DNA of 64,000 nucleotides from Dictyophora rubrovolvata. Taxonomy: Eukaryota > Basidiomycota > Agaricomycetes > Phallales > Phallaceae. The notes under the pieces were generated by a model. It searched no databases. It was not told where the DNA came from and saw only the letters and a list, made by a program, of their open reading frames with translations. Of the stretch, positions 18,142-55,161 are shown piece by piece. Location of the stretch: NCBI GenBank assembly GCA_029959195.1, contig CP114118.1, positions 1,984,001 through 2,048,000 on the forward strand. Reading direction: 5' to 3'. Position numbers and translations under genes: made by a program. Numbering within the stretch: the first letter of the stretch is position 1; each line of letters starts with the position of its first letter.

Positions 18142-18739
18142 ATGACATCTGTTGAAGCTCAGTTCGAGAAAGCCGTAGCTATCGTACAAGGACTTCCCAA
18201 GGACGGGCCTGTCAAACCCTCCGACGAAGACAAATTATTCGTACGTTATCCTCATGATCATGATTCCGATTCCTGATTCTGTTTTATCGTGACATCGGGC
18301 TGAAAATCTGTTTTATCATTGCAGTTCTACAGCCACTACAAACAAGGCACGCTCTCACTCATTGCTCTGATCCCCGAATTTGCGTGCGATTATGTCTGAT
18401 ACACTTGTAACCTTACAGCCACAGTTGGAGACGTAAATACATCCCGACCGGGACTGCTGGATTTCGTCGGGAAAGCCAAATGGTATGGAAGCACCGGGAA
18501 ATCCACTTCTGCATACTGACCACTTGGTCCCTCGAAGGGATGCATGGAAGAAACTCGAAGGAACATCCAAAGAGGATGCGAAGAAGGCTTACGTCGCCAA
18601 GCTTCTAGAGGTATGCAAGATAAAACATCTTCTCAATGTTTCGCAATTTAATAACGACGACGCCATGACAATTTAGCTTTTGAAAGCTGCGGGCGACGAC
18701 AATTCGAAGAAGCAAGTTGCTGAGATAGAGAATGCCTAG
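18142..18739 (+). CDS. ACB1: Acyl-CoA-binding protein
   Basis: A small cytosolic carrier of long-chain acyl-CoA esters. Five exons at 18142-18240, 18325-18346, 18419-18482, 18538-18610 and 18677-18739 give 106 residues, slightly longer than the usual 86-90. The family blocks [39 protein letters not shown] and [19 protein letters not shown] are all there, including the Tyr and Lys of YKQAT and the Lys of KAKW that contact CoA. The tail KQVAEIENA is short. Intron 2 (18347-18418) begins with GC, not GT; the only join giving HYKQATVGD uses that GC donor. It is transcribed away from the PH-domain gene. Confidence 0.95.
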
Positions 18740-19646
18740 TGAAGCCAGCGGAGCATAATGTATACTACAAGTACGTACCGCGTACCGCATAGAATGCTCC
18801 TCCGGATACGGATCATAGTTCCGGGGGTCTTGTTTGTTCGAAGTTACACATGATATACATCTCATACATCCGAGTCGACCGATCTCATTGTGCCAAGTTC
18901 AGTCCTCTGAAAGGTTTAGTACATGTGTGCATGTACATATGTAGTGTGAGCTGAGAGCTGAGCTGGCTAGCCTCGTGTGCCACGACCATAATGTTGATAC
19001 TTGCAAAGTACTAGGTACTAGGCACTAGGCACTGATGGTGCCATGACTTTTGAGTTTTAGTTCAACGCTGTCACTTACAATGGATGAAATAAAATAAAAA
19101 CTAAAATAAAATAAAATATTTTTAGAAGAAATTCACATCCGTCCTCGCGTCGCGTTCGCCCCACCCAATTGCAATTTCGCAATCCCCGGAATTCCCAAAC
19201 CACCACCATGCCCCAGACGCAGACCTCTCGGCTTTTCGACTCTCACCATCTGATTTATAAAAGAAGCTATGATTGACGAGTCTCGACTACATTTAAGTAA
19301 AAGTCAAGAGCTCTCCCGAACCTCCAACTAGTCCATGTCCATCCTCGACTCCTTCAATACTAACTCACCGCCTGAGCGATGAACTCTGTCACGAACGTCG
19401 TCACGAAGGAGAGACAAGGGATGGCGACCGATTCAAAGTCCGGCTACCCCCAAACGATCTGCCTCCCGCTCCCCGGTCGTCCTCTCTCTTCTCTCCCATA
19501 TTTTCTTTCTTCTTCTCTTTGTCTTCTGTTCCAGAAGCTTGGAAGCGTTATAATAAACATTTAAATTGTCCTCTTCTTTCTTCTTTTCTTTTATGTCCTA
19601 CGTCTTTTGAGTGACACTTCAAACATTCATTGCTTCGCATATAAAA
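18740..19646. other. Intergenic region upstream of the G-alpha gene
   Basis: About 900 nt. It holds a 7-bp tandem repeat near 19008, an A-rich block near 19083-19125 and pyrimidine-rich tracts (19485-19600) just before the G-alpha start, typical of fungal core promoters. No gene is supported. Confidence 0.55.
19008..19033. repeat. 7-bp tandem repeat, 3.7 copies
   Basis: GTACTAG occurs twice, followed by GCACTAG and a partial GCACT. Purpose unknown; it lies in the shared intergenic space between ACB1 and the G-alpha gene. Confidence 0.7.
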
Positions 19647-21743
19647 ATGGCCCCGTCAGCTCAGTCCCGCTATCTTTCATCTACAGATAGCACAGATGAT
19701 CCTTTAGCTTTCGCATTGAGGCCCCCGGATGGCGAGACAGAGGAAGAACGTAGAGAGCGACTTGCCCAAGAAGCGAGGAATAAAGAACAGTCAGACTTGA
19801 TTGACGAACAGCTCAAAGCGGAAAGAGAGACCCTGCGAAGGCGCAAGGCTGCTGGAGAAGTCAAGTTACTTCTCCTTGGTCAAGCCGAAAGTGGTAAAAG
19901 TACTTTGCAAAAACAGTAAGTAACAGAGAGAGCTCCCAAGCTCCTTTCGGACTGTTTGATCGTTTGTTTGTTTTTTTTACATTAGGTTCCAACTCATGCA
20001 TGCTCCAGCCAGTCTTGAACAAGAGCGGAGCAGCTGGTCCACCGTCGTCTACCTCAACATTGTCAAGTCCTTACGCGCTGTACTCGACTCCTTCGACAAG
20101 TTTCCCCTCGACCCTGAAACTCTCGATGAATCTTCTTCCCTGTGGCCAACCAGGCTCGCCAATTTGAAATTACGCCTATCCCCTCTATTGGGGATGGAAA
20201 ACGCCCTGACCTCCCGTTTCAGTGCGGGCGGTGCCATTGCTATGCAAAGCGGCAAAGAAGGCGTCCTTGTGCGCAAGGGATGGCAAACTACAATAAAAAC
20301 CACTCCTTTTTTCAGCAAACACCACTCCCAGTGGAGAAACCCCACCATATTGGATGACAATGCACCCTCAGATGATCCAGTCGGAAGAATGGTCTGCGCG
20401 TGCAAGGCACGTACTACAATGAACTCTATTATCAACTTGTATTAACGGCACATCTCTGTTTTATTTAGGATGATATCAAGGAGCTATGGGAACATCCAGC
20501 CGTCAGGGAGCAAATACGTGCTCGTCGTTTGCGATTGGATGATAGTGCCGAGTTGTAAGTGTTTCATTTATCCGACAAGGCCGAGCTGGATCTGAATTAT
20601 TCGAAAAGCTTTTTGAACGATATCTTACGGATTGGGTGTCCGGGCTACTTACCTGAAACCGGTACGTTCTTCCATTACGGAAGCGCACATGGAACCATCT
20701 TTGCTTAAAAAAAACTTTTTGTTTCTTAAGATGACATCATGAGAGCCCGAATTCGAACAATGGGAATTGCTGAGCACGAGTTTGAGGTTTCAATGGGGTC
20801 GAAGGCCGTCCGGTGGCTATTGTACGACGTCGGCGGTGCTCGAAGTCAGGTTTGTTATAGGGAAATTTCCTTTTTTTCTTCTTATCCAGTATATGACATC
20901 TCCCCTTTCCCTTTCACTAGCGCAACTCCTGGATCCCTTACTTTGACGACGCGAATGCAATCATTTTCCTGGCACCAATTTCTGCTTTCGATCAAGTAAT
21001 TCCTCTGTTGTCCCTCCATTGAACCTTCAGCAAATTAAATTGATTTTCATTTAGTATCTAGAAGAAGACTCGCGCACAAACCGCATCGACGACTCATTGC
21101 AATTATTTACTCAAATATGTTCTCACCCCCTGCTCAAACATGTTCATATGGTTCTATTCCTGAGTACGTGTTAGTCCTACGAAACTTATTACTTTTCTCA
21201 CTTTTCCTCCCGCTGCCTACTTAGACAAAACGGACTTATTAAAGGCTAAACTGGAAACTGGAATCCTCGTCAAACGCTAGTAAGCAATGTTTCCTTTGCA
21301 TCTCTTTTCACTCATTTTGTTTTTCAACACTGACATCCGACCGTTGCAGTATAACGTCCTATGGAGAGCGACCTAATACATATGACTCTGTAGCAAGCTA
21401 TTTTAAAGCCCACTTTGCTCAGGTTCATAGGCGGAACAATGATGCAAAGCGTGTACTGTATGTTCATATGACTAGTGTAGTTGTACGTACCTCTCTTTCT
21501 GTCCTCTCACGGCCATGTTCAAACATACCACTTGCCAGGACACAAAAGCCACACAACAGATAATTATAAATGGTAAGTGAAATGTCTCCTTGTGGGTTAG
21601 ATATATATCCATCCCCTCTTCATTTCCAACTAGTGCGAGACTCAATTTTCCGTGGATATCTAAAGGTCTGTAATGTTTCACACTTTAATGGTGATGGATG
21701 TTGAAGTGTGCCTTATTACTTTTAGGACGCAGCATTGGTTTAA
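19647..21743 (+). CDS. Atypical heterotrimeric G-protein alpha subunit
   Basis: Twelve exons give 467 residues, longer than the usual 350-400 because of an N-terminal coiled region and an insert in the helical domain. The P-loop is GQAESGKST (78-86; canonical GxGESGKST). The switch I segment RARIRTMGI keeps the catalytic Arg (R283) and Thr (T286). Switch II reads DVGGARSQ (309-316), so the catalytic Gln is Ala (A313). NKTD is split by an intron (NKxD, base recognition), and the C-terminus is DTKATQQIIINV...YLKDAALV. The N-terminus MAPSAQSRYL lacks the MGxxxS myristoylation signal. Intron 2 (20407-20468) has a GC donor, needed to read CACKDDIKELW. The in-frame ATG at 19647 best fits the context. 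It likely belongs to the expanded basidiomycete G-alpha group. Low GTPase activity is an inference from A313. Confidence 0.92.
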
Positions 21744-22121
21744 GGGACAAAAAAGCAGAAAATTCTGAGCCTTTATACACACATTAATGCTTACTATTAT
21801 TAACCCGGTTTGTTTGTGATTTTATTTCTTATGTTTGCTTTTGAATTTTACGTTTTCCTTAACATAATTAGTATTCATATTTGTATGATCATTGGATACA
21901 TACGCGGAGGCATGGAAATGATTTTTTGTGTTCAAATATATAATCCCATTTTTCGTTCGTCTAGTTTTGTATGCGCTGTAAATAAATTAAAACATTACGT
22001 CATTTGGACAGCGGACCTTGTTCAGCTGCGGTGCGATATGTCCACTAAGCCAAGCCCTATAAAGGTTATATTATCTCCTATCCAATTCATCCGCATCCAG
22101 TCTGTCACTAACTCTTGAGCA
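21744..22121. other. Intergenic, AT-rich
   Basis: About 380 nt between the G-alpha stop and the small conserved hypothetical. AT-rich on the left, with CCTATAAAGG near 22053. I see no gene. Confidence 0.5.
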
Positions 22122-22617
22122 ATGTCTACTCCGTCGTTTTATATTCGTCTGCAAAAAGGTAAAATAAATTTCTTTATCCCCCGCATCATGATATCGCTTA
22201 TCTATAAGGTGCATACTACCAGGGATCACTGGTGGCTTTAAACCCCCAACACCAAATGAAGTTTACTTTATCTCAAAGTCAGACAACAAACTCGTTATCA
22301 ATTCACAAATCCGACCGGATGGAACTCCTCACTTGCTCCCTGAACCACCCAGAGAAATCTCCGCCAGCGAACAGAGCTCTAGAATCGAGGAGCTCGAGGC
22401 GATTCTTAAATCGCTTCCTATAGAAAACCCCGTTGGTGTTCAGGATATTTATGGGTTAGATACGAGCATCGCGTTTGGTAATGGCGATTTGCAATGGATG
22501 AATGGCGGACCGAATGGCTGTGGTACTGGAGAGAGCGATGTTCAACCTACGGACGAGCAGAAGGCTGCTTTCCAAAAGGCCATTGCTCTGATCAAGGAAA
22601 TTGTTGCGGCAGCATAA
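22122..22617 (+). CDS. Small conserved hypothetical protein (143 aa)
   Basis: Two exons (22122-22158, 22223-22617) give 143 residues starting MSTPSFYIRLQKGITGGFKP. No known domain, signal or membrane helix is visible. The middle has a helix rich in Glu (SSRIEELEAILKSLPIE). The block VQDIYGLDTSIAFGNGDLQW and then MNGGPNGCGTGESDVQPT looks strongly constrained, with Asp, Trp, Asn and Cys. The tail EQKAAFQKAIALIKEIVAAA is an amphipathic helix. I recall similar unnamed proteins in other mushroom-forming fungi but cannot name a function. It converges with GTR2. Confidence 0.8.
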
Positions 22618-22914
22618 GCAAATAGAGAACATAATGTATACTCTGTAACAATACCGTATATTGTGTTACCCGTATTGTTGCCTGCCACGCAAATATAAAT
22701 ATCATCAGCTATTTTCGAAATATGTTTCGTCAAACTACCGTGGTATATTTCTTAAAGTCTAGATGAGAGTCTTTTTATGTAAAAATGCAAATATATTGTG
22801 TGAAAGTAGCGATTAATAGACAATTGATACAATTTGTTGAGTGGGGTATTTTGATGCTTGGGGAAAGGACAAATGATGTTTTATTTTGTAGCAAGAAACC
22901 CAAATTTGCGAAGG

Positions 22915-24407
22915 TTATGGAGGCGGCCTCAAGTCATCAGGTTGGCGCCTTCGTTCACTAGCGTCCACCTCTAGGATTTCTTGAACACCCTGTCGGAAGA
23001 AAACGAGATTGTATTCTACCAGACCTCGTCGATTTGAGTAGACTTCCGTTGGAATTATGACGACGAGACAGAGGTTTCTGAAGAAAGAAAGAAAGAAAAT
23101 TAGTCAAATCGCGCCTGTACTTCTTTTGAATAAGTAATACTTCGTGATTTGCCAATAAACGAGGGAAGTATCGGGGTTTAATCTGATAGAGCCATTAGAC
23201 CAAGTGCTGGCATCCCGTGGGTTATCTTCTACACTTTTACTAAAAGTGAAATGAAAAATTGCGGCTGGATGATTCGTAACGGAGAAAGATCTACCTGAAT
23301 AGTGGTGCAAAATCCGAGTGCATTCTAACGTAGTCACAGCAGAGATTGTGTGTATGCCCGTCAACTGGGGATACATCTGTGGCCACGTATATGCGAGAGC
23401 TGCTATCGAACAGGAAAGATTTGAGTAAACGTGAATTCTAATCGAGGAACAAATGAGTAATATGTAGATCTGAATAGATTGGCATACACACAGCGCAAAA
23501 GACGTTGAGTAATTCCTCAAGGTACGGTAGCGGCTCAATAAGTCTCTGCACGAGCTGGGAAAACGACTCCAGTATTGAATGATCCCATATAGACGTAAGA
23601 TGGAATTGAAGCTGAAGAGCGTCTACGTCTACAGTTGTGTCTGTTAACTCGTCAAAAACACGTTGTTGGACGTGGCGATAAGTTTCTGGGAGAGGGAGGG
23701 TAAGTAACATGATAAACGGCTGCAAAGGCGTGAAGCAATCAAACCGATTCTGTAATCATCAGCCAAGGCATCGGCCTTGTGCACAAACACCTCAATATTA
23801 ATTTCAGGGTTAGATTGATACATGATGGTTATGACATCGATCAATTTTGGAATGGAATAGGTGAAAATGTCCTTTTTAATCAAAAAAAAAAGTTACGGTT
23901 AAACGGTGATTCATATTAACATGGCAACAATAGCCTTGCGTTCCGACAAACCTGCATGTCAATGACAAATAACACGGTGGAGAAGTCTTGTAGTGGTAGT
24001 GTGGACAATGTAACGCTGCTGGGACAATCCCAAAATTCCAGTGGAATAGCGGAGCTAAACAGAAAAAGAAACCGTGTCTGCTTAACAAAGGAGCCCCGAA
24101 GCCATGCGAAATGCATAACATGCGACGTACTTGATACGCAGTCTTTGTATTCGGATGGATGGGTCTATGTAGAGGGTGTCCTTTGGGGGTAGATTTTTGA
24201 AAACGACCTCAAGGATAGATGTTTTACCGCTTCTGCAAGACGAACAAACATGAACATGAATGATCGCAAGAGCTCGTGGAAAGCAAAACAACAGAATTCC
24301 GACCTTCGCAAACCGAGAACAAGGACATTAGACGTTCGAATGTAGGGGGTTGCGACAGGCGTTGCATCCGCTGAAGTCGCATTTCCATTTGACTCAATGG
24401 GTGCCAT
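22915..24407 (-). CDS. GTR2: Rag GTPase RagC/RagD type (Gtr2)
   Basis: The C/D half of the vacuolar Rag heterodimer that tells TORC1 about amino acids. Eight exons. It starts MAPIESNGNATSADATP at 24407. G1 is GLRRSGKTSI across intron 1, and VVFKNLPPKDTLYIDPS follows. G3 is LEFWDCPSSVTLSTLPL, then DFSTVLFVIDMQ. G4 is VFVHKADALADDYRIE. The conserved FHLTSIWDHSILESFSQLVQ and LPYLEELLNVFCANS follow. The C-terminal roadblock-like domain has FLFDSSSRIYVATDVSPVDG and LVEYNLVFFRQGVQEILEVD. The last exon starts at 23077 after a GTATTA donor (intron 23140-23078) that restores ITKNLCLVV; reading on without it would stop early and lose the RagC-specific tail. It works with Gtr1, absent here, and is inhibited through SEACIT, whose Npr3 is encoded at 49.5 kb. 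Confidence 0.9.
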
Positions 24408-24572
24408 TCAACGTGCAAAGCAGACTGAATCTGACACGGATCTTCGACCTAGGAGATGCCCTTAAAAAAGGAGCCAGCGCCAGTAAGAGTCTGCCGTCTG
24501 TCTGCCTTGTTGAAAAAGCACTGCAGTGCCAAAGTGCGCCAAAAATAAAGTAAGTCCCCCGCAAAATTTAAA

Positions 24573-24779
24573 TTACGTTCGTGCCCAAGACAACGCGAGT
24601 GAAATGACGAAAGCAATAACAGAAGCAAAGAACAGCCGAAGCCGCAGAAATCTCGTCTGATGAGTCGCTTGAACCTCACCACCAGCACCAGCACCAGCAA
24701 AGTTTTTAGGCGCCCAATCTTTCCGCTCATTTCTAAGTGGGTATCGATGACTTGAAAAAGGAAAAGCCCAAGTTGACAT
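24573..24779 (-). CDS. Possible 68-aa tail-anchored microprotein
   Basis: An open frame begins MSTWAFPFSSHRYPLRNERK and ends with a 19-residue hydrophobic segment (LRLFFASVIAFVISLALSW) followed by ART. That is the shape of a tail-anchored membrane protein. The preceding Gly/Ala stretch (NFAGAGAGGEVQATHQ) is polar and flexible. It lies between tRNA-Gly and the 5' end of GTR2 on the same strand, so it could instead be upstream leader or chance. An upstream exon cannot be excluded. No family recognised. Confidence 0.3.
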   Translation of the reverse strand: MSTWAFPFSSHRYPLRNERKDWAPKNFAGAGAGGEVQATHQTRFLRLRLFFASVIAFVISLALSWART

Positions 24780-24873
24780 TAGAAGCATTTTAGTATTTAT
24801 ATGTAGTACAATATGAACCAATAACTCTAAAACGCGGTGGTTATGGCTCACAGCAACCTTAAACAAAAAAGGC

Positions 24874-24959
24874 TACTGGGACCGGGAATCGAACCCGGCG
24901 CTAACGCTCAATTACTTCACTAGTGGGAAGCGTTAAGGTTACCACTACCCCACCCCAGT
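24874..24959 (-). tRNA. tRNA-Gly (anticodon CCC) with a 15-nt intron
   Basis: The reverse complement folds as a tRNA: acceptor ACTGGGG pairs with TCCCAGT (one G-T), the D stem is GGGT/ACCT, the anticodon stem AACGC/GCGTT and the T stem CCGGG/CCCGG. Box B reads GGTTCGATTCC. The 22-nt anticodon loop becomes the normal 7 nt if a 15-nt intron (24909-24923) is removed one base after the anticodon, which then reads CCC (24925-24927), decoding GGG. Mature length is 71 nt plus CCA. The discriminator base is A. The isotype comes from the anticodon only. Confidence 0.9.
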
Positions 24960-25166
24960 CACAAACGGTCCTCAAACCAAATACTATTCGACTACTATTG
25001 CATGAGTACCAAAGTCCACAGGAAGTACCGAAGAGAAACTACTTGATAATTCTACAGCACCAATGAAAAGGGAGAAAGGAACAAAGTTATGGTACACTGT
25101 TACAAGCGTCCAGCGATAAGAATAAAAATAACACAGCGTAGATCAAGCTCATTCCGTTCTAATTGT

Positions 25167-26751
25167 CTATAAAATCCTCTCTAATTCTTGTTTTTGTTCT
25201 TTGGTCAACCTTTGGGGGAACTGAATATCCCAGCTAAAGTTCCACGTTATTGCTCGCTTAAATGAACGGATAATGAAATAAAGCCTACCGTACGACCAGG
25301 TCACCTCTACCAACAACTCTCCCATGCTTGCGAATGGGCATCCCTGCTCCTCTGATAACGTATTCGTCCCCAGGTCTAATAATGTCAAAGGGGACCTCGA
25401 ATGAAACAGGTCTGGAATCTATGCCAACCAAATGGACTGTGCGTCCTCCCCCAACAAGCGCCTCTCGAAGCGAGATTGGAACATGTGTAATCAGTGTCGA
25501 ACCCTCTCGAGCAAATGAATGATGTGGCAATTCTTCGACAACGAAAACCACGTCTTGTGGCGTATTATTTCTCCGCTCATTTCCCGCTCCGGTGAACCTG
25601 ATCTTGGTCCCTTTCTTCCAGCCTGAACCAATATCAATGTCCACCATCACATCTTTCTTTTTGCCGGATAATAAGTGCCGCGTTATTCGGTAACGGTGTG
25701 GAGAACCTTCGTGAAGTTCTTCCAATGTAAGTGGCAGAGGAAATATCCATTCAGCAGGGATTTCAGTCGACGCATACGTAGTGGTATGTAGCTCTGACCC
25801 CGTATCTTTCAGTGGAACATACTCGTCGCCGTCGTCGTAGATGGTAGCCTTTTCACTTGAAAACGATGGTGGTTCTTGGTGAACCTTTTGTGTTCCGCCC
25901 GACATTCGACGAATAAAGTCTTTCAAACTGCATATAATAAGAATGTCAACACGATGCCTATCCTAGGGATATTTCAGACCTACTCTGCTTCAATTTTTCC
26001 TCCAGAGGACTTTGCTCGACTTTTCGTATCAGTCATGGGGACTTCGGTGGCCGGTTGCGCCCGAGCTCCCTCTGACGTCGACCGGACAGATGAATGGGAG
26101 AAAGAAAAGGTGGGTAGGTTCAAATCCTCGTATACTTTTTGATGCCTTTGGTACTCGTGAAGACCGGCTTCAGATGTGGTATGCTGGGGTGGTTCATGAG
26201 GGACCTTGAGCCCTTCATCTTTGATAGCGTCTCGGAAACCAGGATCTGACTTTGCTTTTGTTGACGAGAACGCACTCATACTGGGAACCTTCAATCCTCC
26301 GCCTGCAGAGAATTGTTCAGGTTTCGATGGCTGGTGCGGTTTCTCAGTCTTAGTGGAGTACGTGCTCGTGGTAGTCGGTCTTGGTCCATGTCGACCGCGA
26401 GCCCTCTCGGTCGTCAATGAAAAGTGATCGCGCCACTCTCGACGACTTTGGTCGATGAGAAATTTATACGCTTCATTTATCTATTCAGTAAAAAATCAAC
26501 ATCCCTTTCTTGTCCGTTAAATGAAGAATTACACACCTCTATAAATTTACGCGCTGCGTCTTCTTTGCTTGTTGTGTGGCGATCTGGGTGCCACTGCAAA
26601 GCCTATGAAGCGGCATCAAAATTAAAGAGATCCGATTAAACAATTGTTATCGTACGAGGCTTTTATAGGCTGCTTTGATATCTTCTGGCGTGGCCGCTTT
26701 GGTCAGTCCGAGAGTACCGTAGTAGTCTTTGAGGTTGGTTTGAGCAGGCAT
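25167..26751 (-). CDS. Class II J-protein (DnaJ) with extended linker
   Basis: Hsp40 co-chaperone that stimulates Hsp70. The J domain starts MPAQTNLKDYYGTLGLTKAA and continues AAYKSLALQWHPDRHTTSKE (HPD present), then EINEAYKFLIDQSRREWRDH. A roughly 130-residue charged linker replaces the usual G/F region, with few glycines. The C-terminal substrate-binding domains follow: FPLPLTLEELHEGSPHRYRI, HLLSGKKKDVMVDIDIGSGW, TKIRFTGAGNERRNNTPQDV, VVEELPHHSFAREGSTLITH, VGGGRTVHLVGIDSRP and GAGMPIRKHGRVVGRGDL. No CXXCXGXG zinc repeats, so not class I. The next gene is also a class II J-protein on the same strand, with clearly related C-terminal domains, which suggests an old duplication. The final intron is read with a GTACGG donor. 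Confidence 0.88.
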
Positions 26752-29214: not shown

Positions 29215-30184
29215 ATGTCCGCCAACCGTAATAGTAATGACACGGAGGAAAACCAGAATATAGAATCTGCCTCTCATAAGTCTATGAGAAGATGGTTTGC
29301 TTCAAGCTCGTTGTCTATTCGAGATTTGCTGTTCCCAACTGGCAATTTACCGAAAAATCCTGAAGGAAGGAGACAACGGGCTATGCGTGCGGATAGGATA
29401 CCGGAAACGGAAGAGGACGAAGATGGTCAGCGACCCACTGTCCGAGATTATCATTCCATCAATGCTATACCACCCCAGGTCAGAGTACCAAAAAAAATAC
29501 CAACCCCCATACAGGTGGAAGGCAAGGTGAGGGCTTCCGAGTATTTGTGCTCTACAGGGCTCAGTACTCATGGCGTTGTATAAGGTTTGGTTTGCGAACG
29601 AACGAAGTATGGAATGATTTGTGTTCGTGTCCTGCATGATGATAATTGCTTTCTTCTTTCTAGCATGGATTTCTTATTTGAATGTCGCCATGCTTCTTGG
29701 AACATTTGCCCTTGCCCTGTTTAATGCTTCGCGAGATCAGATTGCGTTAAATTTTGCTTATTTCTACGCTATAGTTAGCGTCGGAATTATGGTGCGCGAA
29801 AATGAAGTGACATAACAAATTTTTAGTGGTGACGGTCCTTTTCATTTAGATCTATGGCTATATTATTTATCAACAGCGAATCACGATGATTAAACAGCGT
29901 TACCCAGGCAAGCTTTTTTTATAACAGTTATTTCATTCGCTTTGTTGATTAATTTGTACTACTTGTAATAGGACATTTCGGTGTGTGATAGAAAACCAAG
30001 GTTAACGGGATTTTTTCATACTTCTTTTTGAAGATCAAATATTGGGACCCGTTGTTATTTGCATCCTTCTTTTTGTCGCCGTGCTTGCGAATTTCATTAT
30101 TCGAGGTGCGAATATATCATTTAGCTAAAAAAAAAGCAAAGAATTGAAGTTTTAATCATAATTCTACTAGTGAAAGAACTGTAG
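29215..30184 (+). CDS. VTC1: Vtc1-like vacuolar transporter chaperone subunit (DUF202)
   Basis: Membrane subunit of the vacuolar polyphosphate polymerase/translocator. Exons are 29215-29526, 29585-29606, 29664-29791, 29850-29907, 29972-29980, 30034-30105 and 30171-30184 (204 residues). The signature IQVEGKVWFANERTWISYLN begins the domain, and MLLGTFALALFNAS, FAYFYAIVSVGIMIYGYIIY and GPVVICILLFVAVLANFIIR form three membrane helices. TMIKQRYPGHFDQILGP lies before helix 3, and the protein ends VKEL. The N-terminal ~105-residue hydrophilic extension (RRWFASSSLSIRDLLFPTG) is longer than in yeast Vtc1 (129 aa in total). Intron 4 (29908-29971) has a GC donor and exon 5 is only 9 nt. The Vtc4-type catalytic subunit lies 6 kb away. 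Confidence 0.86.
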
Positions 30185-30449: not shown

Positions 30450-31343
30450 ATGGAAACTCCATTGACTGTGCGTCCATTACCAGAAGACGCAAGTCCCCGA
30501 ACGAAGCCTGTGCCGCAAGTTTGCACCCCTTTGGACTTTGCCTATCTACCAAGTGATGATGGCACTGATGAAAATTTGTTGATTCTCTTTCATGGGTTGG
30601 GCAAGCACCTCCTCTTTCCAATCGCGACATCGAAAACTAAAATCCCGGTCTTCACAATTGATATTAGGTGATACACATCTACCATTTTTAGACTTAGGCA
30701 GGTGGTTACGGTTGCCGCAAACTGCTACTTTATCCGTAAGAGCGCCAGAAAGGTAGTAAGAGCTTTACCACAAAAGTGTTTGAGTTTGTGGTTTGATTTC
30801 CGGATTAGGGTACCATACCTAGAGGAAGAAGCGTACCAGTGGTATGAATCATTCACTCTTTTGGGTGATTTACTCGCCAATCCGAATCCAACAAAAACCT
30901 TGGAGCTGCTACAGAAGTTGCTGGAACACCTTGTGGATGACGCTAAATGGCCGGCAAATAAAATTCATTTATTCGGATTTGGGCAGGGAGGAAGCATAGC
31001 CTCCGAACTGGGTCTCAGGTGGTGGAGATGCTATGATGACGCCAAGCATAAACTTGGCTCCATAGTGAGCATTGCGGGCCCACTATTATCATATCCGACC
31101 TTGACATTATCCTGCACGACACCCGTGCTCGTATTTCATCGACCACAATCAGAACAAACTGGGTTGTCCGCAAGTGATCTAATTGCGTTTAAGAAGGGAT
31201 ATGGAGAGAGTATCCAAGAGGTTAAAGCGGAAACTCAAAGTGAAGGAATGCCGAGGTCCAGAGAAGAATGGGAACCGGTAATGAATTTTTGGAGTTCATT
31301 TCTGAGTAGGAGAGGTGGATCTGGGTTGTACCAAGTTTTATAG
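30450..31343 (+). CDS. Alpha/beta-hydrolase fold protein lacking the nucleophile serine
   Basis: Resembles the carboxylesterase/phospholipase-like family of yeast YDL057W. Exons are 30450-30600, 30668-30752 and 30809-31343 (256 residues). Motifs are ENLLILFHGLGDTHLPFLDL, LPQTATLSVRAPERVPYLEE and EAYQWYESFTLLGD, then the nucleophile elbow HLFGFGQGGSIASELGLR. In active esterases the elbow is GFSQGG; here it is GFGQGG (G137), so catalytic activity by the usual mechanism is not expected. Strand SIVSIAGPLLS and TPVLVFHRPQSEQT complete the fold. Intron 1 (30601-30667) has a GC donor; without it the reading would run through a non-homologous stretch. The ATG at 30450 is chosen as the first in frame. 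Possibly a structural or regulatory pseudo-esterase. Confidence 0.8.
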
Positions 31344-44136: not shown

Positions 44137-44362
44137 GCGTCTCAGTTCGACTTGGGTTCAAGGAGTTGTGTAAGCGAATAGACGATTATTTGGATTGATT
44201 CGAATAGCTGGAGTTTAGAATCTGCAAAACGTCGGATACCGTAAGTATAAACCGCGAGTATAGACCGCGACTGAAGGCAAAAGGCAAGAGCCACAGACGC
44301 GATATGTACCTCTATGGGCGCATCAGCTTTTTACTTTGACCTACATTACTCTCAGTCGCAGC

Positions 44363-45241: not shown

Positions 45242-45292
45242 GTCAATTCATGTAACTTATTACAATTAGTCCTTAGTGTACATTAGTTACGT

Positions 45293-46322
45293 TCAACGCT
45301 TCATCAAACCCATTAACTCTCGCTGTATCTCTCTCTGTTTTCTTTCTTGTTCAAGGCTTGGTATACTTCTCAAGTCATTGACAACATCTTTTGTCTTTCC
45401 AAAATAGACCTCTTGGAGTAAATTGCGCATTTTTATTTCCATATCTTCAATCATACGCCCTATATTGGTGACATGGGAACTCGGGTCTGGTAATGCAGCG
45501 TCTTGTTCATGCTGAATACAAAAGAAAAAATATTTTGTATTGATATTCAGGTGTGAGGGTGCGGATGAAGAACATACTTGTCGAGTCATACTTCCACTCA
45601 AATTCATTTCTCCAACGGTATCTTTGTTAGAGACAATATTAAGCATAATTGTACTGGTTAACTTGTAGTGGGCTTGTCGACCACGCTCGCTGGTTTCAAA
45701 AACATGGATGGAGTCCCAAGAGCCCGTAGGTTGGGAAGAGTCGGGTGGGTTCAAAACTGGAATAATCATTGTAGAGCAGCCTTTTAAAATTTGAACGGAA
45801 ATTAATCAACCTTTCTTTAGAAGGACAACGCCCGCGAAGCCTCCGTCGTCCAAATCCCATAGAAAAGAAGAGGATACACCTCCTTCATAATACCTGAATC
45901 ATCCAGAATAATTAGCGAGAAAAAATCACGTTAGATAAACCATGATGACATTTCTCGATAGGTATCAAACGCCTCATTGGTAGCTATCTCTAGCTTTCTC
46001 AATTTTGACGATGGAACCGTGCCGTCTTCAAGTGGAGGATCATATTCATTAGACCAAGGCGACCTGAGCCAAATAAATCACAATACTATATTAGTTAAAA
46101 AGAAACATGCCTATATGAAGTTCCATCACGATTATAATCGCAGGCCAAGTAATCCTTGCCGGTCGCTCGATCTGTCATAAGCTTGAGAGGTTGATCAACG
46201 CTTCCGAGTAGATCGTCAGCATAATCTGGACAGATAGAAATGAGACAATTGACGTTGTCCTCCACGGAAACTGGTGGAAGACGTCTCATTAAATCGAGCA
46301 TGCTGTCTAGTAAGTCGCCCAT
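45293..46322 (-). CDS. CAP2: F-actin-capping protein subunit beta
   Basis: Caps actin barbed ends as a heterodimer with the alpha subunit. From the Met at 46322 it reads [20 protein letters not shown], then [40 protein letters not shown] and [60 protein letters not shown] and [20 protein letters not shown] follow, then [40 protein letters not shown] and a basic tail. A longer in-frame start at 46382 adds 20 residues and is possible. Intron 1 (46110-46064) starts with GC: RSPWSN is only recovered by splicing there. It ends 51 nt beyond the PPIL3 stop, tail to tail, and starts close to the TAN1 stop. Confidence 0.93.
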
Positions 46323-46466
46323 GGATGCTGAATGTGAGCGGAGGTGCCGTACTATTGACCAAATTGCTTCCGCGGCATTCATGCCCTATAAGACAACACC
46401 AAGTGTACGAGGTCTATTCGAGCATTATACCATACAGAAAAAAGCAACCTCGCGTCTACAGTTATT

Positions 46467-47641
46467 TTATAATTTCTCCATGTCTGCTTTCCTTCTAGCT
46501 GCTTCTCCCACCTGTATTACGTTGAAACGCTTAAATCTCTCGTAATGTTGCACAATGCTAATACCACAAATGGACTGTAGTTGCAACGTCGTATAATGTT
46601 TAGCACAAAAAAAGACCAAAAATTACCTCACTTACTTTCAGAATATTGACTATAATAACAACTTCTGGATGTTCCAGGTCGACTTTGTGGCCACCTTCTG
46701 CAGGAACACAAGCCGCAAGAAGTGGTACTAATTCTGACTTTTTGATTTTGTCATGATTGCGAAGTGTCATCTCCAACTTGAACTAAGAAGGATGAGATCT
46801 CAATATTTCAATACATGATTTATGATGAATACTCGATAGCTCTTGGATCCATCTGGTTTGACTGGCAGGGCGTTGAAGGCAGGAGGAATAAATTTTTTGG
46901 ACAATACTAGGATTTCGGGAGTGCTTGCTACACAGGTGTACGAGACAGGATTCAAACGAAGCACATGTCTGTGCGAAGGTGAGACGGAACACATGCTTTG
47001 CTTTTCAGGCTGACTCACTTGGTCCTCGTAACTCCTGTTTTCTCAATACTTTCGAAATGGTGTTCCAATAGCCGTACTGGATCAACAGGGGGTTTACATG
47101 AAATAAAGACAACTGAAAGTGTCATGGGGATCACCAAGCCAATTTCACTAGCACAAAAGCAACTCACCACACGGTGTCCCGGTCTGTACACTAGCTGAGC
47201 CTACAATTAATGAGATTTACAGTTGATAGGTAACCCGCACGGTACCAAATCGTTTTTGTAACCTAGGTTTCTTGAGATCTTGGATTTCTTTCGCAAATTG
47301 TGAATCTATGTCGCTCGCTGAAGTTGGGCTTGGACTATCTTTGATTGTTTCTACCTCAGGGGACCATAACTCGTCCGCTAGCTATTGACGAGGATAAGTG
47401 GTTACACATCCAATTCTTGCAATCGCACCGATTCAAAAATGTCATACAATTCACCAATTGCTGTTCTTTCCCTGCCTTTGTCGCAAGTTGCCCAGATGCC
47501 TGGTCCATCAATGTTCAGTCGAGAAACAAGAGGATAATTCTAACGGTTGCGAGTTCAAAGACCTCAGATGTATTGTCGACAAAAATTAAAGATAAAAAAG
47601 GGTTTACGGACTGCACGCTTTTTTCCGTTTCGCAGTGGCAT
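46467..47641 (-). CDS. TAN1: tRNA acetylation cofactor TAN1 (THUMP domain)
   Basis: THUMP-domain protein needed with Kre33/Nat10 for N4-acetylcytidine in tRNA-Leu and tRNA-Ser. Seven introns. It starts MPLRNGKKRA, continues NYPLVSRLNIDGPGIWATCD, KGRERTAIGELYDIFESLAD and ELWSPEVETIKDSPSPTSAS. FGSASVQTGTPCVVFISCKP and PVDPVRLLEHHFESIEKTG lead into the THUMP domain, RHVLRLNPVSYTCVAST being read KHVLRLNPVSYTCVASTPE here, then FNALPVKPDGSKSYRFKLEM and TLRNHDKIKKSELVPLLAAC. It closes HPEVVIIVNILKSICGISIV, VQHYERFKRFNVIQV and EAARRKADMEKL. Intron 1 uses GTCCGT, chosen by the join into the conserved block. It shares 142 nt of upstream DNA with a divergent Mid2-like gene, and a perfect inverted repeat lies there. 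Confidence 0.85.
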
Positions 47642-47664
47642 TTTGAAAAAACCACTCCAGTCGA

Positions 47665-47691
47665 CCCGGGCGCTTCAGCACAGCGCCCGGG
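47665..47691. repeat. Perfect 10-bp inverted repeat in a bidirectional promoter
   Basis: CCCGGGCGCT (47665-47674) and AGCGCCCGGG (47682-47691) are exactly complementary around a 7-nt loop. It stands 24 nt upstream of the TAN1 start and 93 nt upstream of the Mid2-like start, in otherwise AT-rich DNA. GC-rich palindromes of CGG/CCG type are typical of zinc-cluster dimer sites, but this one is longer than usual. Confidence 0.6.
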
Positions 47692-47783
47692 CCTTTGCAA
47701 CCACCATCAAAAGGAACAGCATTCTTTTGTTTTCGTGCGTTCTTTCTTCGTTTTTTATTCTTCGTTCTTTCCTTCATTCTGCA

Positions 47784-48994
47784 ATGCGCAACAATATTTT
47801 TTTACTGCTTTTTGTTATTTACTCTGTCGCTGCGGTATCCCAGCGGACCCCAACCGATGTCCATCGTCGTGCTCTACCGATAGAGCCACCTGGTAATGGA
47901 GAAAACACAGGAAACCAGGGAGCAGGAAATACAGGAAATACTTCTCCCAATACAGATTCTCCTGCTTCACCCTCTGATTCGACACAAACTACATCGACTA
48001 CAACCACTACCTCATCTATATCCACCACTTCTTCGTCCTCAACTACTTCAAAAACAGATACCTCTTCGTCGCAGTCAACCACGTCGACTGGCTCGTCCAC
48101 CTCGTCTTCGATTACAAAAACTGACAGTACTTCGTCGACATCTCCCCCCCAGTCAACCCCTTCAACGACCCCTTCTCCTACCATATCGTCTCCGCAAGAC
48201 ACAGGCACAGACACTTCGACTCCTGCCTCGACCCCATCACCAAACGGATCCACACCTTCCTCTTCTTCAGATTCTCCGTCTGGTTCTGGTCACAGCTCAT
48301 CGGCATCGGGTGCCGCCTCTAGCAGCGACAGCGATTCCACCGTTCCCACTGGTACCATAATTGGTTTGTCAGTCGCTGGTGGTGTTGCCGTATTGGCTTT
48401 TGTAGCTTTTCTCATTTGGAAGCTCACACGGAGGCGGTTCCATGGTCTTGAAGATATTGATGGTAAGCTGGTTCTTTCGGCGTGCTGTTTACGACTTAAG
48501 ACTCATGCAATTTTTGTTTCTCTTTGTCGCTTACAGAAGCCATAAAGTGGCCGGAAGTTGGCCGCGACCCCTCCAGCAATGTAGGGTATGCGACGGGCCC
48601 TAGTACTGATGCCCTGTCGCGTGATGTTTCCACGACTAATTTTGCTCCGTCCCGCGATTATTTACCCGAAACTAATGATCCCTACGCAGTCCCACCACTC
48701 CCTAACTATAATCCTAACCTTCCTTACCGAGACGATCCCAATAATGTCGGTTATTATGATCCTTATAGAGGACCTTCTCCCGCCGCATTGTATGAAGGTC
48801 CAGTTGACGGCCATGAAAATATTCCCCTTGACACGTTGCCAAACAATGCACGAACACGAAGTCCTGCTCCCCATGCTGCACTGGATGCCACCGGACGAGG
48901 TAGTCCCGTCCCCGGAGCCATAGGATATCAGGCCCAGACAATGGGGCAGTCCACTTACGGTCAAGGTGGCGCGGCTCCGTATCGAGGCTATTGA
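47784..48994 (+). CDS. Mid2/Wsc-like cell-wall sensor
   Basis: Type I single-pass membrane protein. It starts MRNNIFLLLFVIYSVAAVSQ, a signal peptide with a likely cut after VAA. About 160 Ser/Thr-rich residues (heavily O-glycosylated stalk) follow. A membrane helix at GTIIGLSVAGGVAVLAFVAF (about residues 190-213) is followed by a basic stop KLTRRRFHGLEDID. One intron (48463-48536, GT-AG) separates the membrane part from a cytoplasmic tail rich in Pro/Tyr/Asp, with PYAVPPLPNYNPNLPYRDDP and QSTYGQGGAAPYRGY at the end. No cysteine-rich WSC domain, so it is closer to Mid2/Mtl1. In yeast such sensors signal through Rho1; a Sac7-type Rho1 GAP is at 31.7 kb. The exact family cannot be proven from composition. 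Confidence 0.78.
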
Positions 48995-49467
48995 GAAATC
49001 ACCGGACGTTGATGAATTTTCCCTTAGTTGACATCATTTCTGGGTGTCTCGGTAAGCCTTTTTATAAGATCAGGATATGGACCATTGGTTGCATTCCCTT
49101 CATATCTCAAGGCATTTCAATCACCCTCGCATCTTCCATACTGCCTTCACTGTTTCCGCCTTTTGTTGATACACGTTTTGTGCTGCTAAGAACTACGCAT
49201 CTATCCTAGTCATTTGTTTTTTTCCTATACACAGTCCATCTATCCGTGATTACTCTATATTATCATATTTTCTACATTATTTTCCTTATCACTGTTGAGA
49301 AGGACAAGTGAATGTTGGGTTGATTTGAATGTATATTGCGTTGAACGTATATATCATCCGGAGATACTTGAAACCCATACACTACTATTACCTCCCTTGG
49401 TTTTGCTCAGAATGGCGTGTGATGTTGAGGCGCGCGCCGTGACTCTTGTCATGTACCGCGACGCTCA
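48995..49467. other. Intergenic between the wall sensor and NPR3
   Basis: About 470 nt in tandem orientation. AT- and pyrimidine-rich near 49190-49290. No gene or notable motif. Confidence 0.5.
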
Positions 49468-52126
49468 ATGGCTCAGACCCTACTTGGTATCTTGTTCGCA
49501 ACCTCTTCAGCCAAAGACCAAACAATTGCGTTCCGATGGCCGCCATCTATTCATTCCTCCCCGCGATTAGCACGTCCTCGGCCATCTTCTCAACTAAATC
49601 TTACACATGTGGATGCACCATACCGAGCTGCTACTTTCCTAAACACAACTCCAAACGATCAGGAGATGTTCACAACGGTTAGCGATACCTTTGAGTTTGA
49701 ATGGCAGCGTCCCTCTTTGAGACGGTTCAGGTCTCACTCTTTTGCTTCGTCCAGACGCAGCTCCAGCGGCGGCCGCCGTTCACCGGCTGCTCAGCGGAGC
49801 GAACATGCATCTATGATCTGTTCTCCGGAGTATGATGTTGTTTTGGGCTACAACGTGGACTTGTTGGCGCATTTTTTGTGTCCTATGAAAAACAATTGTC
49901 ATCAAAAGTTTGAACTCATTGTCGACGATTTGGTCTTCATTGGTCACCCAGTATGCGTAAACGAGTCTGGAAAATGGGACGTTAAAACGGAAGGAGATAT
50001 CTATACCGAAAATTCGCGCAGTAATGGGGATGATCTTTCGAGCGAAACAGAAGCTGACGCGTGTGATCATGACGAGAGCACACTGAGGCTTTTTCATGTC
50101 GTTTTCGTCTTGGACCTTCCTGACCCCTCTTCATCGGCGTCTGGAAATATCAACAAATATTTTGATACTATTTATCGCACCGTTGTTTTTCCCCTCACCG
50201 CGGTACTCTTCAACGAGCAAGTCCTTCATAATTATGTTGAGCAACAATGGGATATACTTGTCAAAATAAAGGAGGACTGTATTTCCAATGGTCAGATATT
50301 CTCCATCGTTTTCCTTTTCTTTTCTAAGTTATCACCACAGGTGATGCATATGATCGTTACATGGATCAGTGTTCACAACAATCCTCTTTAGCTCAAGGTC
50401 TCCAGCGAATTCATACATCCATACGATCCAACTCTTTAGCAAGGCTTACCTTCAACAACATCACTTTCGATTTACAACTCCCACCGTTTTTAGACGAATT
50501 ATTACGGGCCGATCAGTCTACTTTGAACACGTTCTATTCAGTAGAGGCGGAAACGCTTTACAATGAGGAGGACGAACAATCCGATCGTCCGTATGTGACA
50601 TGGGGGCCCGAGCTATCCTTTGGATGGAAACTGCCAGCGTTCGCTCCATGGAAAGCGCTCTTGTTACTAGATGTTGAGCTCACCGGTCACACACGTCAAC
50701 CAGATCCCTTATTAAATTTCGACGGAGCATATTTCAATTCTCAAGAGCATGAAGTTGCAGAAGGAATTTCGAGGTTTTTAGACTGTGCTTCTGTTTTCGT
50801 ATCGTATGTTTAACATATCGTGTTTATTTCAAAATTGATATGCTGACGATTTATATTTCAAGATTAAACGATATGGCTGTTCTTTTAAATTGGAACCTCG
50901 AAGAGAAGATCTATCCAACCGTCCGATACCTGGTTCAGCGTCGGCGGGCAAAGCTCGTTGATACTGTTCGATCTAGCCTGAAAAGCGTTTTCGCACTGAC
51001 CGCTCAATTCAATAGTCCATCAGTCGCTCAAACACTCACGTCTCAGTTTGCCGACGCATTCCCAACATTACCTGCGCTCCCGGTTATTCTATCCAGACTA
51101 TCCAGTTCTCAGAATAACTTTTATGAAACAGTGGTCCGCTCTAAAGACCTCATCCCCATTTACAGGAATGTTATTGTCTGGTGCCTCAAACGCGACTTAT
51201 TGATCATGCTTCATATGCGTTTTCGACTAGTAGCTTCGCCCACTTTGAAACGCGTAGTCGCTGATAGACGTCGGACAAGGCTTGACAGCCGCGAACGTCG
51301 ACGTATTTTATCTGATGGCCTTTTCAAGCGTAGCAGAAGGCGTCAAAGCAGTGTGGAAAATGAGAGAGGCTTAGGTCAACGTCGAAATATAATACTTGAG
51401 CATAACAATGAGGAGGCTGTTGAAGATGAATCTGGAGATGACGTACCGGCCTCATTGTCAATGCTAACACCCAGCCTACAATCCTCCCCCTTGCGCAACA
51501 GGGAAATGATGTCACGAAGTTCATTTCTTTCCACACCATTAGAGAAAACCCGATATGGAAATTTGAATCCCACAATATCACTTCTGTCAGGGGAGTATCG
51601 GCACCGTCGCTATTCAGACATGTCTCCGGCTTCAAGAGTACGGCTGAGTCCCTTTCCCCTGCCCCCTGGGGAAGAAGAGTATTTGGGGAATATTGAGTCA
51701 GAGTCAGAGTCAGACCCTGAAGATAAGGAAGACTTGGGAGTTGCCAGTATTATAGCAGACCCTGAAAGGGCAACGCCGAAGGAACGACGGTGGTTGCGTG
51801 GCATGACGTTCGGGAAGAATAATATTGTAGCCAAGCAATTCGAAAAGTGAATTGTTATACTTATTCGACTTAAATCTGCTGACCGAATTTTTACAGTTTG
51901 TATAAGTACTTCGATGGTAAAGTCATAGTCGACGAGATACTTTACAGAGCTGAAATTTCTCGCAAAGATCTTCGCGAGGTTTTACAAGAATTCAGCGAGC
52001 ATGTAAGTAGATGTTTTTGTCGTCTTTTTTTCAAACAACTAACTCGCCACCTAGATCATCATGTTCCTGCATGCATAATGTTTCAATAATATCAATTAGG
52101 AGGACATGCTAGCTATTTTCTGGTGA
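49468..52126 (+). CDS. NPR3: Nitrogen permease regulator 3 (NPRL3), SEACIT/GATOR1 subunit
   Basis: Part of the GAP complex that turns off Rag-TORC1 when amino acids fall. It starts MAQTLLGILFATSSAKDQTI, the longin-type opening, with FRWPP. DEYDVVLGY-like VVLGYNVDLLAHFLCPMKNN, FELIVDDLVFIGHPVCVNES and FHVVFVLDLPDPSSSASGNI follow. Exons continue DAYDRYMDQCSQQSSLAQGL, WGPELSFGWKLPAFAPWKAL, LNDMAVLLNWNLEEKIYPTV and FADAFPTLPALPVILSRLSS. A middle insert of about 180 residues is Arg/Ser-rich and acidic and is probably disordered. The C-terminus LYKYFDGKVIVDEILYRAEI, SRKDLREVLQEFSEH and EDMLAIFW (last exon after an intron at 52003) completes it. Five introns at most. It acts on Gtr1; Gtr2 is encoded at 22.9 kb. 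Confidence 0.9.
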
Positions 52127-52328
52127 AGATTGTTTGTAGCTTACATAGCAATGCGGCGCTGTAATACACTCGCCCTGTGCACCACGTACCGCTCGGGGTA
52201 CGGAAATTAACGAAGCGCCACGCTTATAAGTAATGGACCCAATTTGGGCGCCAAATATTGTATATAATAAGTTGCTCGGATTTTCCGCTCAACAGTTTGG
52301 TTTCCCCATAATAATTGACTAGCACTCG

Positions 52329-55161
52329 ATGGCACCACCCACACATCCTTCGGGGGTTAATTTTCTAGAAGACAACCCGCAGTCTGATTATGTTGAATCT
52401 AGCACCTATTATGGTCTTGACCGGTTTCCTCGCAACCGAACTTACAGCAATGTAAAGAAGGCATCTTTTACCCTAAGCTCGCTAACGTCATTGACCACAT
52501 TGTAGGCTCATCTCTATGGCTATAACCCAAAACGACGCCAGTTTGAGCAGGACGATATTCCACGAACACGTAGACTTTCTCATGATGAGAAGTCGACGAC
52601 TGCTCCGCGTCGGTTCTTAATCGATGTGGATGAAACCATTCGTCTCGTTTTGGAGCAGGAAGACACAGATGGTGACTTCCAGATAAGTATCACTGATTCG
52701 GGTCCTAAAGTGATGTCCCTTGGAACGGCGACTAGTAATGGCTTTAAAACCTTTGACATACGTGCAAGTCGAGTGTACATCGAAATCGGAATACGTTGCT
52801 GATGCGGTGGTTCACAGGGGACTTATATGTTGTCCAACCTTCTCCAGGAGCTTGCTTTGGCACGGGATCACGGAAGAAAGCGTATAGTTTTGGATGAAGC
52901 TCGTTTGACTGAAAACCCTGTGTCCCGTTTGTCACGTATGATACGGTCCTCGTTCTGGAATTCCCTTACACGTCGGATTGATGGAGATGGATTGGAAATC
53001 ATATGCGCCGACCCCAAGAACCGAACCGGGAAGATTACACCACGCATATACATTCCATACGGTGAACCAAAAATGGCTGGATATTATCGCAAAGTCGCCA
53101 AGGAAAAACCACATTTGGGCTTAGATGTTCAGGTTTTACCCGAGAATTGCGACGATCCAGCCTTTGTCAAGAGTCTCAATAACAAACCGGGTCTATTGGC
53201 TTTGGCGATGGAAGAGATAGATGACGGTCATGGCGGACGAACAATGAAAGGCATTCCATTTGTTGTTCCCGGAGCCCGATTTAATGAGGTATGTCCTAAA
53301 TAATGGCGCGTATGTTGATATCTCATATCAATTTGCTGGACAGTTGTACAATTGGGATTCATATTTCATATCCCTTGGGTTGCTGGTTGATGGTTATGTA
53401 GAAATGGCAAGGGGGATGGTAGAACATTTTATATTTGAGATCAAACATTACGGGAAAATATTGAACGGGAGTCGTAGCTATGTAAGCTGTTACATTCGCT
53501 TTTTCTACATATTCTAACATTTTCTTCAAAAGTATCTGTGTCGATCCCAGCCACCATTTTTGACCGATATGGCTTTGCAAATATACAATCAGCTTGATCG
53601 TGGTAAATTCCATGAGAATCGAGCTTGGTTGAAACGAGCAATACAGGCAGCTATCAAGGAATACCACACGGTCTGGATGGCCTTGCCGCGCTTGGATCCG
53701 AAGACTGGCCTCTCCCGCTATCGTCCTGATGGACTTGGTATACCTCCCGAAACAGAGGCAACCCACTTTACGCACATTCTCCAACCTTACGCCGATAAAC
53801 ATGGCATCTCCGTTCTAGAATTCAGCGAGAAATATAATGATGGAACCCTTAAAGAACCTGGTCTGGATGAATATTTCTTACATGACCGCGCTGTACGTGA
53901 GTCCGGTCATGATACGACATATCGGTTCGAAAAACGTTGCGCAAATTTGGCAACTATCGATTTGAACGCTCTTTTATACAAGTATGAAATTGATATTGCA
54001 ACTGCAATTCAAGACGTGTTTGATGATTATTTGGAGCTGGAAGACGACTTCCCCCTTTCTCCATTTCCGCCGACCCCTGACGCTTTCAAAAACCGTCAGA
54101 GAGTGTCTTCCCTTGCTAGGGTTCAGACAAGCGATGAATGGTTCAGTCGTGCTGAGCTACGCAAGGAAAATATCGATCGATACCTTTGGAACGATTCGAA
54201 AAATCTTTATTTCGATTATGACACCGCCAAGGGCAAGCAAACGCTCTATGAAAGTGTTACTGCATTTTGGGCCCTTTGGGCCGGGTGTGCCACTGAGGAG
54301 CAATGTTGGAGAATAGTGTTAGTGGTCTGTTCTGACTATCCCACTAATCTCACACCTATATCAGGGAGCACTCCTTGAAGAAGTTCGAAGTCTTAGGTGG
54401 CTTAGTCTCGGGAACAGAAGAATCAAGAGGCAAGATATCCCTTGATCGACCCAATCGCCAATGGGATTATCCGTGAGTATTTTCCATGAAGTCAAAACCA
54501 CTAACGAAACTTTCGTTTTAGCTACGCATGGTATGTCTTCATTCATTATGATTCGACCTTTGTAACTGTGAAAGCAGGCCTCCACACCAAATAATGACAT
54601 GGGTTGGATTAGAACGCTATGGGTACTTAGAGGATGCCCAGCGTCTCGCCTATCGGTTTTTATACATGTAAGTTATATCCTGTTTATGCTCCACGTTATA
54701 GTTTTATATCAATGGCTTTTAGGATGACAACCGCATTCGTTGACTTCAACGGCGTAGTTCCTGAGAAGGTTTTCTTGTTCAAGATGCTTGATTCGAAAAT
54801 TCATATATTAATTTTTTTAAAATTTTTTTCTTCTTCAGTTCGATGCCGTGAAGCTCTCCCATCTGGTTGACGCAGAGTATGGAAATCAGGGGATTGATTT
54901 TAAGCTCATTCCTCGCGAGGGATTCGGTTGGATGAACGGTACAAATCTTGGTTTTTATTTGTTTTGCAATCTGACGGGTTCCTAGCTGCTTATCAAGTTG
55001 GACTATCGTTCTTGACCACACACATGAGGCGTGCTATAGCCACTTGCACAAGTCCTGAGGTATTTTTCCGATCCGGGACAGTTATGGGAGAACTGGCTCC
55101 TATGAAATCTACGGCTACCGATCCATTAGGCATCGCAATGCAATCCCTTAGTTTACAATAA
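52329..55161 (+). CDS. NTH1: Neutral trehalase (GH37) with Ca-binding domain and PKA-type site
   Basis: Cytosolic enzyme splitting trehalose to glucose after stress. It starts [31 protein letters not shown] (about residues 70-80) matches a PKA/14-3-3 site. The Ca-binding domain has [22 protein letters not shown]37 blocks are [44 protein letters not shown]-type [20 protein letters not shown] and [39 protein letters not shown] is read as [60 protein letters not shown] and [20 protein letters not shown] close the barrel. A 9-nt microexon (54522-54530) carries part of PYAW. Intron 2 (52764-52817) seems to have a GC donor; a GTGTAC donor 9 nt later is the alternative. About 10-11 introns. Confidence 0.93.

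What the first reader, a model, noticed from the sequence alone, without database searches (positions are those of the whole stretch)
18347..52817. Excess of GC-AG introns scattered over unrelated genes
Six introns begin with GC by the only join that recovers conserved protein sequence: ACB1 18347-18418, G-alpha 20407-20468, VTC1 29908-29971, hydrolase 30601-30667, CAP2 46110-46064 (minus strand) and probably NTH1 52764-52817. In each, the exon before the GC ends in AG or GT and the next exon gives the family motif (HYKQATV, CKDDIKE, YPGHFDQ, HGLGDTH, RSPWSN, IRGTYM). I count roughly 170-190 introns in the window, so about 3% are GC-AG; fungi usually show around 1%. That suggests a relaxed U1 match, or splicing factors that favour these donors.
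Basis: partly seen in the sequence, partly recalled or inferred. Interest (0 to 1): 0.72.

Follow-up and report, generated by a model that had tools for sequence, protein, structure and literature searches.

The report
Ordinary GC-AG introns in a mushroom-type fungus
A stretch of a fungal genome holds six introns that begin with GC instead of the usual GT; they look real, but their share is close to what curated mushroom genomes already show, so no unusual splicing machinery is needed to explain them.

Summary
The six GC-AG introns look real. PDB homologues align without a gap across the GC join in ACB1, hydrolase, CAP2, NTH1 and VTC1. G-alpha is only favoured: an in-frame GT donor 15 nt upstream fits Pfam equally well. 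A gene finder trained on 324 kb of this genome recovers five of six and adds no other GC intron in the window. At posterior >0.9 it GC introns against a mean of 0.36 for each of 14 control dinucleotides. Nine GC candidates outside the window gain Pfam support. Share: 15 of 791 (1.9%, CI 1.1-3.1); outside alone 9 of 578 (1.6%, 0.7-2.9). Detection-corrected estimates are higher, 3.2-5.7%, with wide intervals. My judgement is 2-3.5%: above the fungal mean (1.0%), near the curated mushrooms Ganoderma lingzhi (1.85%) and Coriolopsis trogii (1.72%). GC donors match U1 better elsewhere (5.1 of 8 positions against 3.9), which fits ordinary compensation and speaks against a relaxed U1. U6 is canonical; U1 was not found. 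Ordinary; low interest.

The parts
18347..18418 (+). GC-AG intron in ACB1 (acyl-CoA-binding protein), donor AAG|GCACGC
   Evidence: PDB alignment without gap across the join; Pfam ACBP 111.7 bits against 78.9 for the GT-only model; model posterior 0.973
20407..20468 (+). GC-AG intron in a G-protein alpha subunit gene, donor AAG|GCACGT; favoured, not settled (in-frame GT donor at 20392)
   Evidence: model posterior 0.955; Pfam cannot tell the joins apart, 336.8 against 337.0 bits; donor scores close, 3.25 against 2.6; PDB alignment block begins at the junction
29908..29971 (+). GC-AG intron in VTC1, donor CAG|GCAAGC
   Evidence: alignment to VTC1 chains without gap at the join; posterior 0.999; in-frame GT at 29899 has a poor donor score, -1.13 against 3.03; Pfam indifferent
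30601..30667 (+). GC-AG intron in a phospholipase/carboxylesterase-like hydrolase, donor TGG|GCAAGC
   Evidence: HGLGDT aligned without gap to acyl-protein thioesterase 2; Pfam Abhydrolase_2 62.1 bits; retention gives a stop; posterior 0.77
46064..46110 (-). GC-AG intron in CAP2 (F-actin capping protein beta), donor TAG|GCATGT
   Evidence: DGTSYRSPWSN aligned without gap to capping protein beta; Pfam 283.9 against 187.5 bits; posterior 1.0
52764..52817 (+). GC-AG intron in NTH1 (neutral trehalase), donor CGT|GCAAGT
   Evidence: [14 protein letters not shown] aligned without gap to neutral trehalase 5jta; retention gives a stop; the model alone prefers an in-frame GT at 52773 (0.53 against 0.11)

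Best explanation
These are ordinary introns of the major (U2-type) spliceosome whose second donor base is C. The single mismatch to U1 at +2 is tolerated because the rest of the donor pairs better than average. They occur across the genome at roughly 2-3.5% of introns, near the level of curated mushroom genomes, and the window holds no special cluster. Shown here: presence, joins, occurrence elsewhere in the sampled genome, stronger flanking donor bases. Inferred: actual splicing, U1 recognition, and the exact share.
For: Homology joins. A gene finder with a 2% prior for GC recovers five of six and no other GC in the window. With GC allowed throughout, the 14 control dinucleotides give 5 calls at posterior >0.9 in all (AC 1, CT 1, GA 3); GC gives 14, or 12-14 in the runs. 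Nine GC candidates outside gain at least 6 bits or a whole Pfam domain. 15 GC donors match U1 at 5.13 of 8 positions against 3.88 for 776 GT donors (p = 7e-5) and 4.15 for GT donors that pass the same penalty (p = 5e-4). Published curated shares: 1.85% Ganoderma lingzhi, 1.72% Coriolopsis trogii; fungal mean 1.009%.
Against: Detection-corrected estimates lie above the mushroom level: 3.6% per GT at posterior >0.5 (1.9-6.1) and 5.2% at >0.9 (2.8-8.8). No RNA evidence. U1 of this genome not read. The sample is 324 kb of 28.2 Mb; half of its twenty 10-kb stretches lie on C1 and C2, and 60 kb (L001-L020) was brought in by a strong-donor word. Three of six introns have in-frame GT alternatives. Four of the nine Pfam gains outside come from sequence restored downstream of a truncated GT-only model, so they show an intron and its frame more than the exact donor.
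Confidence: 0.86

Rival explanations
1. The genome has a truly raised GC-AG share (about 3.5-5%, twice that of other mushrooms) because U1 or a U1-associated factor accepts C at +2 more readily.
For: Detection-corrected estimates of 3.2-5.7%; raw model count 27 of 803.
Against: Homology-supported count is 15 of 791, outside alone 9 of 578. GC donors carry stronger flanking bases, the opposite of relaxed recognition. The U6 copies read are canonical. The corrected figures assume that GC introns are no easier to detect than GT introns, which their stronger donors contradict.
Confidence: 0.1
2. Some of the six are misassigned: a nearby in-frame GT donor is used in G-alpha (20392), NTH1 (52773) or VTC1 (29899).
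For: All three GT joins keep the frame; Pfam is indifferent for G-alpha and VTC1; the model prefers GT in NTH1.
Against: Homologues align without gap to the GC joins of NTH1 and VTC1; the GT versions themselves were not aligned to PDB chains. The GT donors match U1 at only 1-2 of 8 positions, though their model scores are close to those of the GC donors in G-alpha (2.6 against 3.25) and NTH1 (1.01 against 1.36).
Confidence: 0.15
3. The GC donors are weak sites kept for regulated alternative splicing, with GC and in-frame GT donors as tandem alternatives.
For: Three of six have an in-frame GT within 15 nt. Regulated GC donors exist in animals (passage in PMC7242645).
Against: The genes are of unrelated function; in NTH1 and VTC1 the GT alternative disagrees with the homologue's length. 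That such in-frame GTs arise by chance is my estimate, not computed.
Confidence: 0.05

Closest known systems
GC-AG introns of Ganoderma lingzhi, curated annotation (PMC11590231; passages seen)
   Same: Mushroom genome; GC-AG the main non-canonical class at 1.85%; non-canonical sites on all 13 chromosomes without significant functional enrichment of their genes.
   Different: Share measured with RNA data and manual curation; here 1.9% by the homology-supported count and 2-3.5% as my judgement, from sequence only.
GC-AG introns of Coriolopsis trogii (PMC13395996; passages seen)
   Same: Manually curated mushroom genome with GC-AG at 1.72%.
   Different: Some sites validated experimentally; here no RNA.
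Fungal average GC-AG share (PMC7072748; passages and Table 1 seen)
   Same: Same intron class.
   Different: 1.009% over annotated fungal genomes; annotation can miss GC donors (in G. lingzhi 1.26% before and 1.85% after correction).

Membership tests
U2-type GC-AG intron | Intron starts with GC and ends with AG | tested here: met
   All six
U2-type GC-AG intron | The GC join restores the conserved protein | tested here: met
   Five of six by alignment without gap; a GT-only rival was scored in Pfam for ACB1, CAP2, VTC1 and G-alpha, and lost clearly only in ACB1 and CAP2; G-alpha inconclusive
U2-type GC-AG intron | Strong donor consensus at the other positions | tested here: met
U2-type GC-AG intron | Length like that of GT-AG introns of the same genome | tested here: met
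   47-72 nt; GT introns at posterior >0.9 span 47-82 nt (2.5-97.5 percentile)
U2-type GC-AG intron | Spliced RNA at these donors | not testable with these tools
   No RNA-seq at hand
U12-type intron | Donor of the type RTATCCTT (recalled) | tested here: not met
   None of the six donors resembles it, by inspection
Genome with a relaxed U1 | Changed 5' end of U1 snRNA | tested here: inconclusive
   U1 not found with RF00003 (no match at E 0.001; one weak place, 17.8 bits, E 0.33), nor by Rfam in 20 of the 26 places with ATACTTACCTG; 4 of these 20 have an Sm-like word within 330 bases, not followed up

The most novel reading that the evidence does not exclude
The genome carries 3.5-5% GC-AG introns, about twice the share in other curated mushrooms, through an adapted U1 or U1-associated factor that tolerates C at +2 when -1 and +5 are G.
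Probability: 0.09. Interest if true: 0.4.

Novelty: already known. Interest (0 to 1): 0.14.

Why it matters
It matters mostly for annotation. At about five introns per predicted gene (803 introns in 162 genes) and a 2-3% GC share, a gene finder that allows only GT donors would break or alter roughly one gene in ten (inference). GT-only models here truncate the PALP-domain gene in L015 and the Sld5-domain gene in L008, and drop residues in the Dynamin-domain gene in L024. It gives no reason to postulate new splicing machinery.

Tried and rejected
First gene-finder versions were overfitted (5th-order coding model; held-out test) and gave noisy non-GT calls. Their numbers are superseded; the GT-only rivals of ACB1, CAP2, VTC1 and G-alpha scored still stem from that version.

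The first control, in which a decoy dinucleotide stood in place of GC, overstated the background. Of its 33 decoy calls at posterior >0.9, 29 sat on or beside sites that the model otherwise calls GC, 21 of them homology-supported (recount). It was repeated with GC always allowed. A 16-class fit gave GC 3.7% (locus bootstrap 2.7-4.9) but AC 3.65% as well, so I do not rely on it. The GC call L021:776 is not specific: AC and GA score as well there.

Of 18 GC candidates outside the window at posterior >0.5, 14 were put to Pfam. Nine gained at least 6 bits or a domain over the GT-only model: L003:1414 (+10.0), L003:2112 (+11.0), L008:1008 (33.1 against none), L015:1780 (+48.1), L023:6787 (+7.2), L024:7845 (+6.1), L030:794 (TPR_2 +15.4, no stretch passing on its own, the weakest case), L030:3377 (+14.7), L039:2866 (44.1 against none). 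In L008, L015, L030:794 and L039:2866 the GT-only model is truncated, so the gain comes from restored downstream sequence. L039:4655 gained 4.1 bits in Patatin but lost in DUF3336, where the trimmed ends differ. L037:226 was uninformative (TRI12 18.3 against 18.8). L021:776, L021:3639 and L036:7082 had no family; only their GC version was scanned. L039:2382 lies in a scanned protein outside the domain. L016:575, L021:9601 and L024:9959 were not put to Pfam. The proteins were trimmed to 130 residues on either side of the junction.

U1 was sought and not found. Rfam over the window gave no match at gathering thresholds. Paper searches.

Full report
Observation. The window is G000:C2:1984001-2048000 of a 28,239,528-base genome in 11 contigs. 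The six listed introns begin with GC and end with AG (read). Alignments to PDB chains run across the GC join without a gap for ACB1 (3fp5, 148 bits), CAP2 (capping protein beta, 261 bits), the hydrolase (acyl-protein thioesterase 2, 30.9 bits), NTH1 (neutral trehalase, 218.6 bits) and VTC1 (53 bits). Against the GT-only models, Pfam scores are higher with GC for ACB1 (111.7 against 78.9) and CAP2 (283.9 against 187.5, with a longer N-terminus in the GC version). For G-alpha the GC and an in-frame GT join score the same (336.8 and 337.0), so that intron rests on the gene model (posterior 0.955); the two donor scores are close (3.25 and 2.6). VTC1 and NTH1 also have in-frame GT alternatives. Pfam does not separate the VTC1 joins (26.0 and 26.2). 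The gene model alone prefers GT in NTH1 (0.53 against 0.11). The homologue alignments favour GC in both, though the GT versions were not aligned to PDB chains themselves.

Is it more than chance? I wrote a two-strand gene-structure model and trained it on the 324,220 bases held at that point: window 64 kb, twenty 10-kb stretches from all 11 contigs (ten of them from C1 and C2), and twenty 3-kb loci brought in by a donor-like word. After correction of an overfitted coding model it predicts 162 genes and 803 introns, 776 GT and 27 GC. In the window it predicts 207 GT and 5 GC introns. With the GC class kept and each of the 14 other non-GT dinucleotides given the same 2% prior, these reach posterior >0.9 five times in all (AC 1, CT 1, GA 3), mean 0.36 per class. 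GC does so 14 times in the two-class run and 12-14 times in the runs. GC therefore stands out as a donor class; GA with 3 is next, and one of those 3 shares the doubtful site L021:776.

How many? Nine GC candidates outside the window gain at least 6 bits or a whole Pfam domain over the GT-only model; of 18 candidates at posterior >0.5, 14 were put to Pfam. Four of the nine gains come from sequence restored downstream of a truncated model. These are low figures, because GC introns outside known domains are not counted. Correcting for detection with GT introns that carry the same penalty gives 3.6% per GT at posterior >0.5 (1.9-6.1) and 5.2% at >0.9 (2.8-8.8). Stratified by donor strength the share is 3.2% at >0.5 and up to 5.7% at >0.95. 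Leaving out the twenty word-selected loci changes little (3.4% at >0.5, 5.3% at >0.9). These corrected figures overestimate if GC introns are easier to detect than GT ones, as their stronger donors suggest: five of the six window introns were recovered at >0.5, against 477 of 776 (61%) penalised GT introns. My judgement is 2-3.5%.

Comparison. The mean over annotated fungal genomes is 1.009% (PMC7072748, passages and Table 1). Curated mushroom annotations give 1.85% for Ganoderma lingzhi (PMC11590231, passages; 1.26% before correction) and 1.72% for Coriolopsis trogii (PMC13395996, passages). Six of 213 in the window has P = 0.022 at 1.009% but 0.20 at 1.85%; 15 of 791 has P = 0.016 and 0.50; 9 of 578 outside has P = 0.13 and 0.74. 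The choice of a 1% baseline is a large part of what made the window look odd. That the organism is a mushroom-type basidiomycete is my inference from intron density and the closeness of ACB1 to 3fp5 (from Moniliophthora, recalled).

Mechanism. The 15 GC donors match the U1 complement at 5.13 of 8 positions other than +1 and +2, against 3.88 for all 776 GT donors (p = 7e-5), 4.01 for the 558 at posterior >0.9 (p = 2e-4) and 4.15 for the 477 GT donors that survive the same penalty (p = 5e-4). G at both -1 and +5 occurs in 12 of 15 against 34% of GT donors. Position by position (with L037:226 in place of L003:1414, uncorrected for eight tests) the gain is clearest for G at -1 (13 of 15, p = 0.004), then A at -2 (p = 0.02) and A at +3 (p = 0.03); G at +5 (14 of 15 against 437 of 558) is not significant by itself. 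This is the compensation expected when the standard U1 must tolerate one mismatch; a relaxed U1 would predict weaker or equal flanks. U6 has four copies above the Rfam cut-off; the three copies read carry the standard ACAGAGA region. U1 was not found, so its 5' end is untested.

Verdict. Low interest except as a caution for annotation.

Noticed in passing
window 24874-24959, minus strand: tRNA-Trp (anticodon cca) between protein genes.
   Followed up: no
L043 1149-1264 (+) and 1501-1616 (-): Two full-length U6 snRNA copies in opposite orientation about 240 bases apart on C10; two more copies on C4 and C7 have the same score.
   Followed up: partly
L021 about 5-954, minus strand: A predicted protein with an aspartic-protease-like motif resembles part of a retroelement; the GC intron called there is not specific. 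The likeness is recalled; Pfam found nothing at E 0.01.
   Followed up: partly
window 20392, 29899, 52773: In-frame GT donors 9-15 nt from three of the GC donors, possible tandem alternative 5' splice sites.
   Followed up: partly
L039 2119-3091, minus strand: One PUB-domain gene with two predicted GC-AG introns (2866-2812 and 2382-2329), posteriors 0.99 each; only the first is supported by the Pfam domain.
   Followed up: partly
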